From Pseudomonadota bacterium (GTDB lineage: Bacteria > Pseudomonadota > Gammaproteobacteria > Halothiobacillales > Halothiobacillaceae): a stretch of DNA of 7,553 nt. Both the position numbers and the translations under genes were made by a program. Every line of letters begins with the position of its first letter. Positions within the stretch are counted from its first letter, which is position 1. Below the pieces are notes generated by a model that searched no databases, had not been told where the DNA came from, and saw nothing but the letters and a program-made list of their open reading frames with translations. Shown one piece after another: positions 3,275 through 7,553 of this stretch. The DNA lies in assembly GCA_021795795.1 (NCBI GenBank), contig JAJYPA010000406.1:1-7553 (forward strand). Reading direction: 5' to 3'.

Positions 3275-3565
3275 TTAATCTTGTCCGGCCTGGCGCATAT
3301 TCTCTCTCATTTTCTCAAACGCGATAGCCGCTTCACCGGCCTTTTCTTGCGCCTTTTGCAGTTCCAGCTTCTTTTGAGCCACATTACAGCCAGCCAGGGA
3401 CACCCGAGCCTCCACTTCGGCTTTAAGGGATTCCCAGGCTTCGGCTTCCGTTCGGAAGTGCGAATTGATGTAACATATCTCACCGTCACTATCGGTTCCC
3501 GGGTATGGCTCGCCTTCGACTTCTCGAACAGTCACGTTTTGCGTGTCTCTCTTGTATAGTTTCAT
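3275..3565 (-). CDS. Hypothetical phage protein with C-terminal coiled coil, 96 aa
   Basis: The family is not recognised. The N-terminal about 36 residues look like a small beta domain (EGEPYPGTDSDGEICYINSH). The rest is a long amphipathic helix rich in Ala, Glu and Lys (about 38-92, for example LELQKAQEKAGEAAIAFEKM), likely a coiled coil. The ATG at 3565 overlaps the stop of the DUF6575-like gene as ATGA, so translation is coupled to the gene carrying the transposon junction. Its expression could therefore depend on how that junction is translated. Confidence 0.68.
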   Translation of the reverse strand: MKLYKRDTQNVTVREVEGEPYPGTDSDGEICYINSHFRTEAEAWESLKAEVEARVSLAGCNVAQKKLELQKAQEKAGEAAIAFEKMRENMRQAGQD

Positions 3566-4050
3566 GCAGCTCGCTCCGCCACCAAAAGATTAATCAATCC
3601 AGTTATGTCGCAAGATTCACCGGCCGCTACATCGGTCAACACGCATCCTGGCTCCGGCAGGTCATTTTCTTTCAGGTTGGCGAAGCAGGTAGCTTCCCAT
3701 TGTGTATTATTATCCCCGTCCACGGTCGCCATGAACATCTTTTCAGCCTTTTTGATGCAGGCCAGCAGATCGACTTCCTTACGCAAGTATAGGATCGCCA
3801 ATTCCCGATTGATCGACAGCCACAGCCAGATATTTGCGGTATCCGTGCAGTCCTGCCAGGACACGATGTACAGATCACCGTCCATGGCGCGGTACAAGGC
3901 CACCAGCGGCCCGTCGTACCACATGAGGTTACCCAACAGTTCAGCGTTGGCCAGGTTCGTGTATGAATTCACCGAGTGCGCCGGGAAGCACCGGCCTTCA
4001 GGCCGGTGAGGGATAGGCGCGGCGGGCGTAGACCCCCCGTCGGTTATCAT
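3562..4050 (-). CDS. DUF6575-like protein remnant with transposon-derived N-terminus
   Basis: From about residue 27 (VNSYTNLANAELLGN) the sequence is phage-like. The motif LLGNLMWYDGPLVALYR and the following DGDLYIVSWQD resemble the core of DUF6575-type proteins (recalled, unverified). The first about 26 residues are encoded by the right end of the IscB element, including its hairpin (read as HRPEGRC). The preferred start is the ATG at 4050-4048, which overlaps the iscB stop (ATGA) and has GGGAG 8 nt upstream. The frame is also open back to an ATG at 4104 inside iscB (180 aa), and GTG at 3972 is possible. The native N-terminus was evidently lost or displaced by insertion. The product is thus a chimera; whether it still functions is unknown. 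Confidence 0.55.
   Translation of the reverse strand: MITDGGSTPAAPIPHRPEGRCFPAHSVNSYTNLANAELLGNLMWYDGPLVALYRAMDGDLYIVSWQDCTDTANIWLWLSINRELAILYLRKEVDLLACIKKAEKMFMATVDGDNNTQWEATCFANLKENDLPEPGCVLTDVAAGESCDITGLINLLVAERAA
3989..4008 (-). repeat. Right-end hairpin of the IscB element
   Basis: This is a perfect 8-bp stem with a TGAA loop on the minus strand, CACCGGCC-TGAA-GGCCGGTG. It lies 38 bp after the iscB stop and matches the left-end hairpin in core sequence and orientation. In IS200/IS605 elements such subterminal hairpins are what the Y1 transposase binds. No T-run follows, so it is unlikely to be an intrinsic terminator. It is translated within the chimeric downstream ORF. Confidence 0.75.
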
Positions 4051-5471
4051 GACAGCGTCTCCCGGTAGTAACTGTAACCATCCGATCGTTGAATCAACCG
4101 GCAATCCTCCGCCCTGATCCCATCTTGCGGGCCGGATTTCGTGCGAATCTTGAACGACCCCGACGAACGCACCGCCACCCGCCCCACATGAACACCCTTG
4201 CGTTTTCCCTTCGCCACGTCCGCACGCACCATGTCCCCGGTCTGGAATCCATGGTGCAGTTTTTGACGCGGCAGGAAAGACACGCGCCGGCCTTTCTGGT
4301 CCAGATTGGTGCGCTGATATTGCCCGCGCCCGTCACAATGCACCCGCCAATACGGATGGTCCCAATCCTCCACCCGGCCCACCAACCCCATGCAGGCGGC
4401 GTCCAGCGCGTGTCGCTTCGGTACGCCGAACCGGGTGCGGTTCCATTTGGCCTGCGCACCAGTGCTGATCTCCACCGGCAACCCAGTGCCCTCCAGCATC
4501 CGCAGCACCGCGGCACGAGTGGCGTTGATGGCCGCCACATCCATGAGTGGCGCCTTGGCCTGCGCCTGTATGCGCGTCAACCGGGTGGCTTCGTGCTGTT
4601 TCCTCTCAGCGAGTTTCTTTGTGTCCACGGCACCACCCTCAGTCGCGGCGAAACGTTGCGCGTTCCGCTCGAACCGGCGAAACCGTTTCTTGCCCGCATG
4701 CAAAAAATCGGGCAGATACAACGCGCCCTTCTCCAGATTGCAGGGCTCGCAAGCCAAGGTCAGGTTGCTGATCCGGTCCGTCCCACCATTCGCGCGGGCC
4801 AGAATGTGTTCCACCTGCAGAGGCTTGTCGTCCGCGTCACAATAGGTGCAGGTTCTCCCCCATTTCTCCAGCAGATATTCCCGCACCTCGTATCCGAACA
4901 GGGTGCCCTGCTGATACTTGATTCCGGATATCTCCGGATTCTGCAACCGCTGCGTATCAAAGCGATGCAGCATGGTGCTGATCGCGGTGACGGGCGCCAA
5001 AGACATCAGCCGGTTGCACCAGGACGCCGTTGTGTCCACCCGATGCTGCAAAGACGGCGGCAACCAACCCTCTGGACGACTGCGGTTATCGGACCGTGCA
5101 GCCCGATGACGGGTTTTGCGGTGCCGCCGACCGCCCCGCATATTGGAACGTTGCTCCAGCTTCTTGCTGATCAGCGCGCCCCGATGCTCCAGATCGAGCA
5201 TATTGATCACATGCTCCACCCGCTCCACCGCGCCGGTCACGGGTTCCACCGTCTCCGATTCGCGGACCAGCGCGATGCCCGTTTTGTGACTGGCCGGACC
5301 GATTTTGAGACGCAGCGGCTGCAGCGCGCCGCCTGCCATATCCTTGAGACGAATGGTGAACGGATACATCCTGTGCACCACCGCCCGTCCGCGTTCCAGC
5401 AGCAGTCGCGCCCGTTTCTCCGAGCACGGCATCAGGGGCCGCTTCTTTTTGTCCAGCACATAAACCGCCAT
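4047..5471 (-). CDS. iscB: IscB RNA-guided HNH/RuvC protein with both RuvC-I and RuvC-II catalytic residues lost
   Basis: IscB proteins use an omega-RNA to bind DNA; HNH cuts the target strand and RuvC the other. The order seen is: PLMP segment (RPLMP, residues 11-15); RuvC-I (RLKIGPASHKTGIAL, 54-68); Arg-rich bridge helix (about 108-134); RuvC-II (ISTMLHRFDTQ, 164-174); HNH with C208/C211, E221-H222, N236, C241/C244; RuvC-III (PKRHALDAAC, 351-360, H354 and D357); and a C-terminal TAM-interacting-like domain (about 408-474). Relatives have IDPGS in RuvC-I and an ELxRF Glu in RuvC-II. Here these are G58 (codon GGT, one transition from GAT) and M167 (codon ATG). The length is normal, with no frameshift, and HNH residues are kept. 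Predicted activity is guided binding with at most target-strand nicking. The start has AGAGGT 6 nt upstream. Confidence 0.93.
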   Translation of the reverse strand: MAVYVLDKKKRPLMPCSEKRARLLLERGRAVVHRMYPFTIRLKDMAGGALQPLRLKIGPASHKTGIALVRESETVEPVTGAVERVEHVINMLDLEHRGALISKKLEQRSNMRGGRRHRKTRHRAARSDNRSRPEGWLPPSLQHRVDTTASWCNRLMSLAPVTAISTMLHRFDTQRLQNPEISGIKYQQGTLFGYEVREYLLEKWGRTCTYCDADDKPLQVEHILARANGGTDRISNLTLACEPCNLEKGALYLPDFLHAGKKRFRRFERNAQRFAATEGGAVDTKKLAERKQHEATRLTRIQAQAKAPLMDVAAINATRAAVLRMLEGTGLPVEISTGAQAKWNRTRFGVPKRHALDAACMGLVGRVEDWDHPYWRVHCDGRGQYQRTNLDQKGRRVSFLPRQKLHHGFQTGDMVRADVAKGKRKGVHVGRVAVRSSGSFKIRTKSGPQDGIRAEDCRLIQRSDGYSYYRETLS

Positions 5472-5484
5472 TCCACACCTCTTT

Positions 5485-5762
5485 CAATGACGTCCTTACG
5501 GACCCTGTAACAACCTTTTTCGAGATCTCCCCTCGGGGGGTCCATAACCGGCTCCTGCCTGTGAGGGCAGCGGTTGGTCCTTCGCGGCTTTGCCTTTCCG
5601 CAGCATGAGCCCAACCTTGCAGAGTCCGGAACTGAGGCAGCATCCCGGAGTGCGTCTGTACGACCTGTTATGAACGTCTACCAACGTCTCACGACGTTAC
5701 GCGGTCCCCATGATCAACCAAGCCTGCGTACTGCCTTGCAAGCTCCGGCCTTCAGGCCGGGG
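5485..5762 (-). ncRNA. Omega-RNA (HEARO-type) scaffold for IscB
   Basis: The roughly 290 nt upstream of iscB hold no credible gene but dense structure, in the position known for omega-RNA/HEARO RNAs. Reading the minus strand from 5762, there is the left hairpin, then AACGTC-GTGA-GACGTT (5698-5683, GNRA-type loop), then GACGCACTCCGGGAT (5656-5642) followed by pairing CCGGA. Next are CTGCC-N6-GGCAG and GTCC-GTAA-GGAC (5503-5492). GGACCC (5543-5538) can also pair with GGGTCC (5505-5500), either as a long-range stem or a pseudoknot. The GACGCAC...GGGAT...CCGGA...CTGCA pattern resembles the scaffold described for OgeuIscB (from memory). The 3' boundary near the iscB start is approximate. No promoter is evident just upstream, so the RNA may be processed from the phage operon transcript. 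Confidence 0.75.
5743..5762 (-). repeat. Left-end hairpin of the IscB element
   Basis: The stem on the minus strand is CCCCGGCC-TGAA-GGCCGGAG: 8 bp including one G-T wobble. It lies directly after TTAC and forms the first stem of the omega-RNA. Its core and orientation match the right-end hairpin. The TGA in the loop (5754-5752) is the stop codon of the upstream 225-aa ORF. Confidence 0.75.
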
Positions 5763-6429
5763 TAATTGACGACATGCTCCTTTCACTTGTTGGGTATTTC
5801 TGCTGGAGCCGTCTTAGCTCTGCAATTTCGCGGGCTTCCTTTTCCGCAGCTTGTGCTGTTAACGCCAGTTGTTTTTTAAGCGCGGCGTTCTTCCGCTGCT
5901 GGGCATATTGTTGACATGCGGATGTTTCATTCAGCCGTTCGTCATCGATATCGCTTTCAGAAACGATGACGATTTCCCTGATTTTCTCGAAGTCCACCTC
6001 GGTGTACTCGTCACCACGATCTTCTTGCGGGGTCTCTCGAATCTTCATCTGCCCCAGTTTTTCATACAAATCGTTTAGGCTTTCTGCTCTGATCCAACAG
6101 GATCCATCTTTACAGGCATCCCGATTGTCCATGTCACGATAGTAATCTGACACCGTTACAAAACACTCGAATTGCGAAACCTTCTTGCTCATGTCAGTCT
6201 CCGTTCTCAAAATATGCGCAATAACCTGTTCACGCCGATCAGCTAGCACCCGTTTTGCCTCATTGAAATCGGGATGCGCGTCCAGGATCGTATCGATGGA
6301 CTCGTAGATTAAAATCTCAGGAGTCCCGTAACGCGCTCGGCAAGCGGCTATCGCCAAACGGGTGCTGCGCTCCACCTTTTCGTTGTGGGCGCGTGGCTGG
6401 GTTTCCCGATCAACATCTGGCGAGGCCAT
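5752..6429 (-). CDS. Hypothetical phage protein, 225 aa, 3' end altered by IscB element
   Basis: The family is not recognised. Residues 1-79 form a mostly helical domain (for example TRLAIAACRARYGTPEILIYE). Residues 80-225 begin MSKKVSQFECFVTVSDYY, contain CKDGSCW and acidic stretches, and end in a long coiled-coil helix rich in Ala, Gln and Lys (about 175-212). The last residues, PA, and the TGA stop are supplied by the left hairpin of the IscB element, so the native C-terminus is changed. An internal in-frame ATG (codon 80, 6192-6190) has GGAG 6 nt upstream, so a second product of 146 aa, or an ancestral fusion of two genes, is plausible. The main start (6429) has AGGGGGA upstream and lies 14 nt after the previous stop. 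Confidence 0.68.
   Translation of the reverse strand: MASPDVDRETQPRAHNEKVERSTRLAIAACRARYGTPEILIYESIDTILDAHPDFNEAKRVLADRREQVIAHILRTETDMSKKVSQFECFVTVSDYYRDMDNRDACKDGSCWIRAESLNDLYEKLGQMKIRETPQEDRGDEYTEVDFEKIREIVIVSESDIDDERLNETSACQQYAQQRKNAALKKQLALTAQAAEKEAREIAELRRLQQKYPTSERSMSSITPA
5763..5778 (-). other. Presumed omega-RNA guide segment (flanking phage DNA)
   Basis: In IscB systems the guide is the roughly 16 nt immediately 5' of the scaffold, taken from DNA flanking the insertion. Here that reads AGCATGTCGTCAATTA on the minus strand. It directly follows AAAGG and includes the sequence GGAGCATG, that is, a ribosome-binding-like and start-codon-like stretch of the interrupted phage locus. Guide length and exact ends are inferred from other IscB systems. 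Confidence 0.55.
6190..6202 (-). promoter_or_regulatory. Internal Shine-Dalgarno and ATG within the 225-aa ORF
   Basis: GGAG (6202-6199) sits 6 nt before an in-frame ATG (6192-6190). The residues after it, MSKKVSQFECFV, look like a natural N-terminus. This would give an independent 146-aa protein starting at codon 80 of the longer frame. Confidence 0.45.
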
Positions 6430-7025: not shown

Positions 7026-7553
7026 TTAATCTGGCAATGCATCCATCGCCAGGATGGCGACCGCCGTCACGGTTTCCGTCAATTCTTCCAGCGTGCCGTC
7101 ATTGCGAATCTGGAGATCCGGACTGCAAGTTTCCCAGAACACTTCAGACACATGGCCCGCCACCGGCTCCACGCCGGGCCGCAACACCAGGCCAAGTCGT
7201 CCGCCGAGTTCCCGCACCAGGTCCGCCTCATTCTGGAAACGCACGTCGGTCACGACCCAATCCTGGTCAGGGCCGGAAAGCAGCCGGTCTCGGACCTTGT
7301 CGATCCAATAGGACTCGCGTTGCGCCCTGCGGTATTCGGTGCCCCACCACTGGAGGATCTGGCGAGGGGGATACGGGATGTTGGAGTGTCCGATGGGGCG
7401 GTTTCCACGATGTTTGATCTGACGCACGACCTGAGCAAACTCGCCTTCCATGCAGTGACCGAGAGACAGTCTCGCGCTGCGCTTCTCCTTCGTTTCGCGG
7501 GTCTTGAGGAACGTGATGGGCACATTAAACGCTGTGCTGACTTCCTTGTACAA
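7026..7553 (-). CDS. Deoxynucleoside monophosphate kinase, T4 gp1-like (N-terminus outside window)
   Basis: Phage dNMP kinases phosphorylate dNMPs to dNDPs for phage DNA synthesis in the cytoplasm. The visible 175 codons are the middle and C-terminal parts. PRQILQWWGTEYRRAQ (residues 63-78 of the visible part) corresponds to the substrate-binding segment of the family. VVTDVRFQNEADLVRELGG (100-118) is the characteristic DVRFxNEA block. HVSE (134-137) and NDGTLEEL (151-158) match the late conserved motifs. The P-loop should lie upstream, beyond the right edge, so catalytic competence cannot be judged. The first visible codon is TTG and is probably internal. This gene is the main functional sign that the region is phage-derived. 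Confidence 0.82.
   Translation of the reverse strand: MYKEVSTAFNVPITFLKTRETKEKRSARLSLGHCMEGEFAQVVRQIKHRGNRPIGHSNIPYPPRQILQWWGTEYRRAQRESYWIDKVRDRLLSGPDQDWVVTDVRFQNEADLVRELGGRLGLVLRPGVEPVAGHVSEVFWETCSPDLQIRNDGTLEELTETVTAVAILAMDALPD

What the first reader, a model, noticed from the sequence alone, without database searches (positions are those of the whole stretch)
4047..5471. Natural IscB with two RuvC catalytic residues replaced but HNH intact
Seen: RuvC-I reads KIGPASHKTG where relatives have KIDPGSKTTG (Asp to Gly58, codon GGT), and RuvC-II reads ISTMLHRF where relatives have a Glu before LxRF (Met167, codon ATG). HNH residues (E221, H222, N236, C208/C211/C241/C244), RuvC-III H354/D357, PLMP, bridge helix and C-terminal domain are kept, and the frame is full length. 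Known: losing these acidic residues abolishes RuvC cleavage in Cas9 and IscB. Inference: selection may keep guided DNA binding or target-strand nicking, comparable to the nuclease-dead TnpB-derived repressors (TldRs). The alternative is early decay of an orphan element.
Basis: partly seen in the sequence, partly recalled or inferred. Interest (0 to 1): 0.78.

Follow-up and report, generated by a model that had tools for sequence, protein, structure and literature searches.

The report
IscB with natural dead RuvC site
A small RNA-guided DNA cutter from a mobile element, probably in a phage, has lost the catalytic residues of one of its two blades while keeping the other, and many related enzymes share the same change, so it probably nicks one DNA strand instead of cutting both.

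Summary
The window's IscB (4047-5471, minus) has Gly58 and Met167 where OgeuIscB has the RuvC acids D61 and E193; the HNH and zinc residues are kept and a HEARO (omega RNA) gene lies directly upstream. It is not a decaying singleton. The two closest proteins (87% and 84%, both 474 aa) lack both acids too. In 315 related proteins, 71 carry Met/Leu/Ile at 167; all 71 also have His/Tyr at 169 (none of 238 E-type rows does), 46 have also lost D58, and all 71 keep the HNH His and Asn. No acid takes over elsewhere. In Acidithiobacillus and relatives such genes are under purifying selection (dN/dS about 0.11-0.23), keep HEARO, and move: one has an empty site in a sister genome that matches its 16-nt guide exactly. 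A RuvC-II+HNH segment (residues about 136-330) tracks the state while both ends do not, so it seems exchanged as a module. Most likely mechanism (inferred): an RNA-guided, HNH-only target-strand nickase serving element homing or retention. RuvC-inactive, HNH-active IscB has one published precedent found (Cas12-linked, PMC10910872); the wide, motif-defined, mobile group was not found in the papers searched.

The parts
4047..5471 (-). IscB coding sequence, 474 aa; RuvC acids lost, HNH intact
5298..5300 (-). codon 58, Gly, where RuvC-I Asp is expected (OgeuIscB D61)
   Evidence: G in 3 of 3 closest proteins, window included
4971..4973 (-). codon 167, Met, where RuvC-II Glu is expected (OgeuIscB E193)
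   Evidence: Met/Ile/Met in the closest trio
4965..4967 (-). codon 169, His, linked to the loss of Glu167
   Evidence: H or Y in 71 of 71 [MLI]167 rows, 0 of 238 E-type rows
4704..4886 (-). HNH domain (residues 196-256) with H222, N236 and four zinc cysteines kept
4401..4412 (-). RuvC-III His354 to Asp357, kept
4596..4703 (-). 36-residue stretch after HNH (residues 257-292) of the closest trio
   Evidence: 36 residues here in P0001-P0003; 31 in P0236 and P0270; fewer than 25 in the other 310 of 315
5522..5770 (-). HEARO (omega) RNA gene
   Evidence: RF02033 74.3 bits, E 5e-14, whole model matched, below the gathering score of 83
5771..5786 (-). inferred 16-nt guide, DNA directly 5' of HEARO
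   Evidence: position read; rule (about 16-nt 5' guide) from PMC9640706 passages and from the L117 empty site; not shown for the window itself
5745..5760 (-). left-end hairpin CCGGCCTGAAGGCCGG
   Evidence: two exact copies in the window, none in 200 shuffles
3991..4006 (-). right-end copy of the same hairpin
3974..5770 (-). inferred extent of the mobile element (right end uncertain by several bases)
   Evidence: hairpins, HEARO start, analogy to L117/L161; no empty site found for the window
3562..3972 (-). ORF just downstream of the element, weakly like DUF6575; possibly disturbed by the insertion
   Evidence: PF20215 21.4 bits, below its cut-off of 26.6 (scanned as 3562-4104); sequence
5752..6429 (-). 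upstream ORF whose stop codon lies inside the HEARO gene

Best explanation
This is an IscB on an IS200/IS605-like (ISC) element whose RuvC nuclease has been switched off while HNH stays active. With its HEARO omega RNA it should open the site that matches its 16-nt guide and nick only the target strand through HNH. Because the guide is the DNA just left of the element, the target is the same locus without the insert, so the nick would start recombination or fork repair that copies the element in or keeps it after excision: an RNA-guided counterpart of phage nicking HNH homing endonucleases and the mirror image of the RuvC-only nickase IsrB. Shown here: loss of the acids, their sharing by close relatives and a large group, HNH conservation, purifying selection, HEARO retention, and, for related elements, mobility (two) and an exact guide-to-empty-site match (one). 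Inferred: that RuvC chemistry is really zero, that HNH nicks, and that nicking serves homing in this phage-like locus.
For: Both closest proteins lack both acids. 71 of 315 rows have [MLI]167, all with H/Y169; D58 is lost in 46 of 71, against 2 of the 233 E-type rows with a residue there; H222 and N236 kept in 71 of 71. D58 loss goes with E167 loss in independent tree pairs (18 pairs on supported branches; on average 9.3 same way, 0.2 opposite, 8.5 no difference; sign test median p 0.004). No acid relocates. dN/dS 0.11-0.23 over 21 M/L-type pairs; HNH region 0.104 in M/L-type, 0.116 in E-type. HEARO directly upstream in 8 of 9 M/L-type loci, the ninth cut by its contig end. Element L117 (A58/M167) has an empty site in another genome, flanks 99.0% and 91.6%, guide 16 of 16. 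IscBs with the RuvC-I Asp mutated (D61A, called RuvC-inactivated; D59A, called putative nickase) work in base editors (PMC13180657 and PMC9755519, passages).
Against: No biochemistry. The T-[MLI]-L-H motif is itself conserved (T166 68 of 71, H169 69 of 71), more than drift in a dead site predicts, so RuvC may have a changed rather than absent role. RuvC-III H354 and D357 are mostly kept (67 and 70 of 71), and 25 of 71 rows keep D58. For the window clade there is no DNA of relatives (no dN/dS), no empty site, and no transposase recognised in the ten proteins scanned; in 8 genomes TnpA was on no contig that carries an M/L-type IscB, though many contigs are short. No M/L-type IscB was found among IMG/VR contigs (pattern: 0 stretches; of the five loci three are D/E, one C/E, one a fragment), so phage homing by this type rests on the window. 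L112's guide is similar, not identical, to its sister empty site. The window's HEARO score is below the gathering cut-off.
Confidence: 0.62

Rival explanations
1. The [MLI]-x-H motif is a rewired RuvC site: His169, two residues on in the same strand region, with H354 and D357 still supports some metal-dependent cleavage, so the enzyme is not a pure nickase.
For: H169 and T166 are nearly fixed in the group and linked to the E167 loss (His at 169 in 0.96 of doubly-lost rows against 0.00 of E-type); H354/D357 mostly kept.
Against: D58, by the Mg ion in OgeuIscB (PMC9640706 passages), is lost to A, N, T, G or S in 46 of 71; H354 is lost in 4 of 71 and D357 in 1 of 71. The window has lost D58.
Confidence: 0.12
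2. A guided binder or repressor like TldR: it blocks transcription or translation at the matching site without cutting.
For: RuvC acids are lost; the inferred window guide covers a ribosome-binding-site-like stretch and an ATG.
Against: HNH catalytic and zinc residues kept: H222 and N236 in 71 of 71, four cysteines in 58 of 58 M/L/I rows of the 227-row set; two related elements are mobile, with guides set by the insertion site, not by a conserved regulatory target.
Confidence: 0.1
3. Early decay of an orphan element in this one phage.
For: No transposase recognised in the window; both RuvC acids lost.
Against: Three 474-aa proteins at 84-87% identity, gap-free, none with either acid; purifying selection in the wider group; HEARO kept.
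Confidence: 0.06
4. Decoy or competitor: the RuvC-dead protein binds omega RNAs or targets of intact IscBs in the same cell and blunts them, as suggested in print for a phage RuvC-inactive Cas9 acting on host crRNAs.
For: Three genomes carry both types: G003, G006, G011; published analogue in phage Cas9 (PMC10910872 section 13).
Against: 8 of 9 M/L-type loci have their own HEARO; nothing here shows cross-loading.
Confidence: 0.06

Closest known systems
IscB (OgeuIscB, OrufIscB; HEARO/OMEGA)
   Same: PLMP, bridge helix, split RuvC fold, HNH, C-terminal region, HEARO RNA upstream with a 5' guide
   Different: RuvC Asp and Glu replaced; His two residues after the Glu position; 36-residue stretch after HNH
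RuvC-inactivated, HNH-active IscB linked to inactive Cas12 and an HTH protein (PMC10910872 section 12)
   Same: Same half-dead state, suggested there to function as a nickase
   Different: No Cas12 or HTH gene recognised among the ten window proteins scanned; here mobile-element-borne, with a diagnostic motif in many lineages. Whether that IscB carries the same motif could not be checked
IsrB (DtIsrB)
   Same: Natural RNA-guided nickase of the same element family; highest-Z fold match, tied with IscBs
   Different: IsrB lacks HNH; here HNH is kept and the RuvC acids are lost (the mirror image)
Engineered RuvC-dead IscBs (D61A OrufIscB, D59A MG35-1)
   Same: Same residue of RuvC-I lost
   Different: Made by hand; here natural and with a second acid lost
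Nicking HNH homing endonucleases of phages (I-PfoP3I)
   Same: HNH nick at the insert-free allele of a phage gene; proposed function
   Different: Protein-guided; no relation claimed beyond the HNH motif
TldR, nuclease-dead TnpB-derived repressors
   Same: Natural loss of RuvC catalysis in a transposon nuclease
   Different: TldR descends from TnpB, which has no HNH (recalled); here a second nuclease is intact

Membership tests
IscB | PLMP + RRXRR/bridge helix + HNH inside split RuvC fold | tested here: met
IscB | HEARO/omega RNA gene directly upstream | tested here: met
   74.3 bits, E 5e-14, but under the gathering score of 83
IscB | Catalytic RuvC residues D, E, H, D | tested here: not met
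   D and E replaced, H and D kept; so an IscB by descent and architecture, not a canonical double-strand-cutting IscB by residues
IscB | Catalytic HNH residues and zinc cysteines | tested here: met
IscB | RNA-guided DNA cleavage | not testable with these tools
   needs biochemistry
IsrB | HNH absent, RuvC active | tested here: not met
   HNH present, RuvC acids lost
IshB | HNH with PLMP but no RuvC domain (definition recalled; its paper is not held) | tested here: not met
   RuvC fold kept
TldR | Descent from TnpB | tested here: not met
   IscB by NF040563 and RRXRR
TldR | No nuclease activity left | tested here: inconclusive
   HNH residues intact; activity not assayed
Cas12-linked RuvC-inactive IscB (PMC10910872) | Cas12 and HTH gene beside it | tested here: inconclusive
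   ten window proteins scanned with Pfam and PHROGs gave no Cas12 or HTH match; the window is only 7.5 kb and its smaller ORFs were not all scanned
Nicking HNH homing endonuclease (works like, not member) | Nick at the insert-free allele | not testable with these tools
   nicking needs an assay; an exact guide-to-empty-site match was seen for relative L117 only

The most novel reading that the evidence does not exclude
A widespread class of natural HNH-only RNA-guided nickases exists among IscB elements. It is defined by a T-[M/L/I]-L-H RuvC-II motif in place of Q-E-L-V, carried on a RuvC-II+HNH module that recombination moves between IscB backbones, switching RuvC off and letting the RuvC-I Asp decay afterwards. 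These nickases drive homing of their elements, including in phages, with single-strand nicks instead of double-strand breaks.
Probability: 0.5. Interest if true: 0.8.

Novelty: new variant of a known kind. Interest (0 to 1): 0.64.

Why it matters
If true, nature has made the mirror image of IsrB: an IscB nickase of the type that engineers build by mutating D61. It would provide ready-made compact nickases for base editing, show that double-strand breaks are not needed for spread of RNA-guided elements, and give a natural experiment (RuvC-on and RuvC-off genes in one genome) on what each blade contributes to element survival. The linked His169 asks what a RuvC fold does once its metal site is gone.

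Tried and rejected
Relocated catalytic acid: searched all columns for Asp/Glu gained in doubly-lost rows; best was position 302 (0.78 against 0.20), and the window has Gln there; rejected.

Met167 as an internal start giving an HNH-only protein: by eye, the 20 bases before the codon show no ribosome-binding site at the usual spacing in 8 of 8 genes looked at, and position 167 is Leu (CTG in L115, L116) or Ile in some rows; not supported.

A single clade of RuvC-dead IscBs: not supported. In a 120-row tree the dead rows are not one group. With trait columns left out, the E/non-E label needs at least 26 changes on a 303-row FastTree; 35 with residues 136-330 also left out; 23 on that segment alone, less 159-181. 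These trees assume one history per column, which module exchange violates, and many branches are weak, so the counts are not numbers of independent origins. That the inside-only tree still needs 23 changes means the motif block itself is exchanged, or arises again, on a finer scale than the 136-330 segment, or that the short tree is noisy.

Domestication at one fixed locus: not seen; empty sites were found for two M/L-type elements at different places.

Transposase partner: PF01797 gave 24 places in 6 of 8 genomes; none lies on a contig with an M/L-type IscB; G003 and G011 have none.

Led nowhere: viral relatives of three window genes, DNA match of the window to phage records, the first structure model with 20 sequences (pLDDT 58), flank of L139 in sister genomes, TldR+IscB paper search. 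Phage-record relatives of the window IscB are at most 42% identical (24 records, 3 covering 80% or more); their RuvC state was not read. Pattern [x]L[HY]RFDxQ....PE: 0 stretches in viral contigs against 90 for a looser E/V pattern; the two patterns are not equally strict. In species genomes 15 stretches, of which 7 are IscB, from 6 genomes; the other 8 gave no IscB hit by tblastn at 1e-10. Of 369 genomes of the class, 9 have a match at 1e-100, and 2 of these 9 (one the centre itself) carry M/L-type, the rest E-type. The IscB on A. caldus plasmid pTcM1 is ordinary D/E type.

Bias: protein searches were aimed at the RuvC-dead group, only the best 120 of each were listed, and two searches scored only the 8000 best candidates, so 71 of 315 is no prevalence. 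In the first, unaimed search 13 of 120 had M/L/I at 167. L117 was dropped from dN/dS by my start-motif filter; fragments such as L119 were not used. In 10 of 21 E-type pairs dS could not be computed. The regional dN/dS and module tests used 10 of those genes, leaving out L116 and the more distant E-type L141, L144, L145. The 303-row trees leave out 12 of 315 rows, those under 380 aa.
Full report
WHAT IS THERE. In the window (7553 bases) the ORFs that I take for genes lie on the minus strand. Ten predicted proteins were scanned: one is IscB, one matches a deoxynucleoside monophosphate kinase (Pfam 38 bits; PHROG 139, 102 bits), one PHROG 32020 of unknown function, one weakly DUF6575 below its cut-off, and six have no match at 0.01 in either library. 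This looks like phage DNA, but no phage record matched the DNA and no whole genome is held. IscB occupies 4047-5471 minus. A HEARO RNA gene lies at 5522-5770 minus, directly upstream (74.3 bits, E 5e-14, under the gathering score of 83). Two exact copies of a 16-base hairpin, CCGGCCTGAAGGCCGG, lie at 5745-5760 and 3991-4006, one at each end of the IscB+HEARO unit, as expected of element ends.

THE RESIDUES. In an alignment to a solved IscB chain, G58 lies under the RuvC-I Asp, M167 under the RuvC-II Glu, and H222, H354 and D357 under the HNH His and the RuvC-III His and Asp. PMC9640706 (passages seen) names D61, E193, H340 and D343 as the RuvC catalytic residues of OgeuIscB, places a Mg ion near D61 and E193, and uses E193A/H247A to prevent target cleavage. 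A model from 133 sequences has mean pLDDT 80; its highest matches by VIA Z are IsrB (17.4), OrufIscB (16.6) and OgeuIscB (16.2-16.5), with a Cas9 (9k31) at 16.4; differences under 1 are ties. Both lost positions lie at or next to strand ends of the RuvC fold (strands 53-59 and 161-167), where block mean pLDDT is 89 and 85.

NOT A SINGLETON. The unaimed search returned two close proteins, 87% and 84% identical, both 474 aa like the window's, then a gap to 58% or less. Both carry IGPASHKTG, and have Ile or Met at 167. Differences between pairs of the three are 4-8 in the 61-residue HNH and 7-10 in the 36-residue stretch after it. Among 315 proteins from three searches, 71 have Met, Leu or Ile at 167 and all 71 have His (69) or Tyr (2) at 169; of 238 E-type rows none does. 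Residue 166 is Thr in 68 of 71. Residue 58 in the 71 is Ala 26, Asp 25, Asn 10, Thr 5, Gly 4, Ser 1; in the 238 it is Asp 231, gap 5, Gly 1, Asn 1. HNH H222 and N236 are kept in 71 of 71; H354 in 67, D357 in 70. Six further rows have Lys (4), Gln (1) or Gly (1) at 167. Two of the searches were aimed at this group, so these are not prevalences. Named carriers of M/L-type rows include Acidithiobacillus thiooxidans, ferrooxidans, ferrivorans, albertensis, montserratensis and marinus, Acidiferrobacter and Sinimarinibacterium (source names; states). Sinimarinibacterium sp. NLF-5-8 has two non-E copies whose listings give the same 3,200,809-base contig length (P0039 and P0267), so assembly error is unlikely.

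ORDER OF LOSS. D58 is lost almost only where E167 is lost. On independent tree pairs that differ at 167 (E or not), D58 goes the same way in 9.3 of 18 pairs on average, the opposite way in 0.2 and does not differ in 8.5 (sign test median p 0.004, range 0.0005-0.039). Since 25 of the 71 rows have lost E but keep D, while only 2 E-type rows have lost D, the likely order is Glu first and Asp later, to several different residues, as expected once the metal site is useless. No acid is gained elsewhere. Against simple drift, the replacement motif at 166-169 is itself conserved; I cannot explain His169.

A MOVING MODULE. In ten genes of the Acidithiobacillus group (6 M/L-type, 4 E-type), DNA identity with trait codons left out follows the RuvC state in all ten 30-codon windows from 136-165 to 301-330 that had enough aligned codons (best of all 210 labelings each time), and in no window from 1 to 150 or from 316 to 465 (rank 10 of 210 at best). 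For example L112, M-type, is nearest to the E-type L118 of its own genome at residues 1-40 and 81-120 but to M/L-types in the four windows from 165 to 340. P0055 is nearest to intact rows over most of its length but to dead rows at 151-180, where it has the dead motif block. The RuvC-II+HNH segment therefore appears to be exchanged between backbones, and D58 lies outside it. The label needs many changes on every tree tried (26, 35 and 23); the trees are weak under recombination. One search's tree puts the window trio on its own long branch (0.71); how it came by the motif, transfer or convergence, is unknown.

SELECTION AND RNA. Pairwise dN/dS is 0.11-0.23 in 21 pairs of seven M/L-type genes and 0.09-0.26 in the 11 of 21 E-type pairs where dS could be computed; dS is high (0.6-1.9 in the M/L pairs), so values are rough. 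By region the HNH value is 0.104 (M/L) and 0.116 (E); RuvC-III and the C-terminal region are somewhat higher in M/L-type (0.176 against 0.119; 0.125 against 0.089). HEARO was found directly upstream of IscB in 8 of 9 M/L-type loci at 81-101 bits, the ninth being cut by its contig end, and in 12 of 12 E-type loci at 50-131 bits. Five of the nine M/L-type loci have lost D58 too (L112-L115, L117), three keep it (L111, L116, L139), one lacks that part (L119).

MOBILITY AND GUIDE. The flank of L117 (A58/M167) matches another genome of the genus: 1175 bases at 99.0% and 1421 at 91.6%, adjacent there with no element between. The 16 bases before HEARO in L117 occur once, exactly, in that empty locus, at the junction (strand searched: that of the guide). 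L112 (T58/M167) also lacks its element in a sister genome (flanks 79% and 74%); its guide there is similar, not identical. For L139 no sister site was found. So RuvC-dead-type elements move, and at least one guide points at the site without the element. For the window, the same rule gives a guide at 5771-5786 and an element of about 3974-5770. The guide would cover a ribosome-binding-site-like stretch and an ATG; the ORF after the element may be disturbed by the insertion. No empty site for the window was found.

MECHANISM. Shown: RuvC acids lost, HNH residues kept, RNA kept, selection, mobility and guide logic in relatives. From established knowledge: in Cas9, whose layout IscB shares, HNH cuts the target strand and RuvC the other (PMC12991159 passages); IscBs with the RuvC-I Asp mutated serve in base editors as RuvC-inactivated or putative nickase forms (PMC13180657 and PMC9755519 passages); TnpB acts in element retention like a homing endonuclease (PMC11870625 passages); a phage HNH homing endonuclease nicks the intron-minus allele (PMC3428280, abstract). 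Inference: the window IscB nicks the uninserted locus and so helps its element to persist or spread.

KNOWN OR NEW. PMC10910872 (sections 12 and 13 read) reports one Cas12-linked IscB with inactivated RuvC and active HNH, suggested to function as a nickase, and a phage II-C Cas9 in the same state. The half-dead state is therefore not new. I found no account of a wide, motif-defined, mobile RuvC-dead IscB group, nor of exchange of the RuvC-II+HNH segment, in ten full-text searches of open papers, nine of which named IscB (listings seen, papers read only as stated). The founding OMEGA paper (science.abj6856) is not held, so the absence is weak evidence.

LIMITS. No assay; lists and trees from capped searches; no DNA for the two closest proteins; no coordinates of the model to measure site geometry.

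Noticed in passing
P0239, P0240, P0267, P0298, P0126, P0182 (positions 58/167/169): Other non-Glu states at 167: N/K/L (2 rows), N/Q/H (Sinimarinibacterium), D/G/V, D/K/V (2 rows); possible further losses of RuvC by other routes.
   Followed up: partly
L004 1530-2798 (viral contig) and P0045: Glu kept at RuvC-II but the RuvC-I Asp replaced by Cys (L004) or Gly (P0045).
   Followed up: no
L117 1161-1190: The left flank has an imperfect tandem copy of the 15-base guide region that the empty site L161 lacks, perhaps a trace of an earlier insertion or excision.
   Followed up: no
G006:C23 about 5500-8600 and G012:C63 about 6500-8300: The flank of L112 (genome G003) has a 72% match near the L117 insertion in G006 and near its empty site in G012, so two M/L-type elements seem to sit at different points of one related gene neighbourhood.
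   Followed up: no
L117 2855-2871: The IscB reading frame runs past the element's inferred right end, so its stop codon seems to lie in flanking DNA.
   Followed up: no
G003, G006, G011: One genome carries both an M/L-type and an E-type IscB; G003 and G011 have no Y1 transposase hit.
   Followed up: partly
window 4596-4703: 36-residue stretch after HNH, also 31 residues in P0236 (D/M) and P0270 (D/E); function unknown.
   Followed up: partly
window 7026-7553: Deoxynucleoside monophosphate kinase (PF21448, PHROG 139), pointing to a phage.
   Followed up: no
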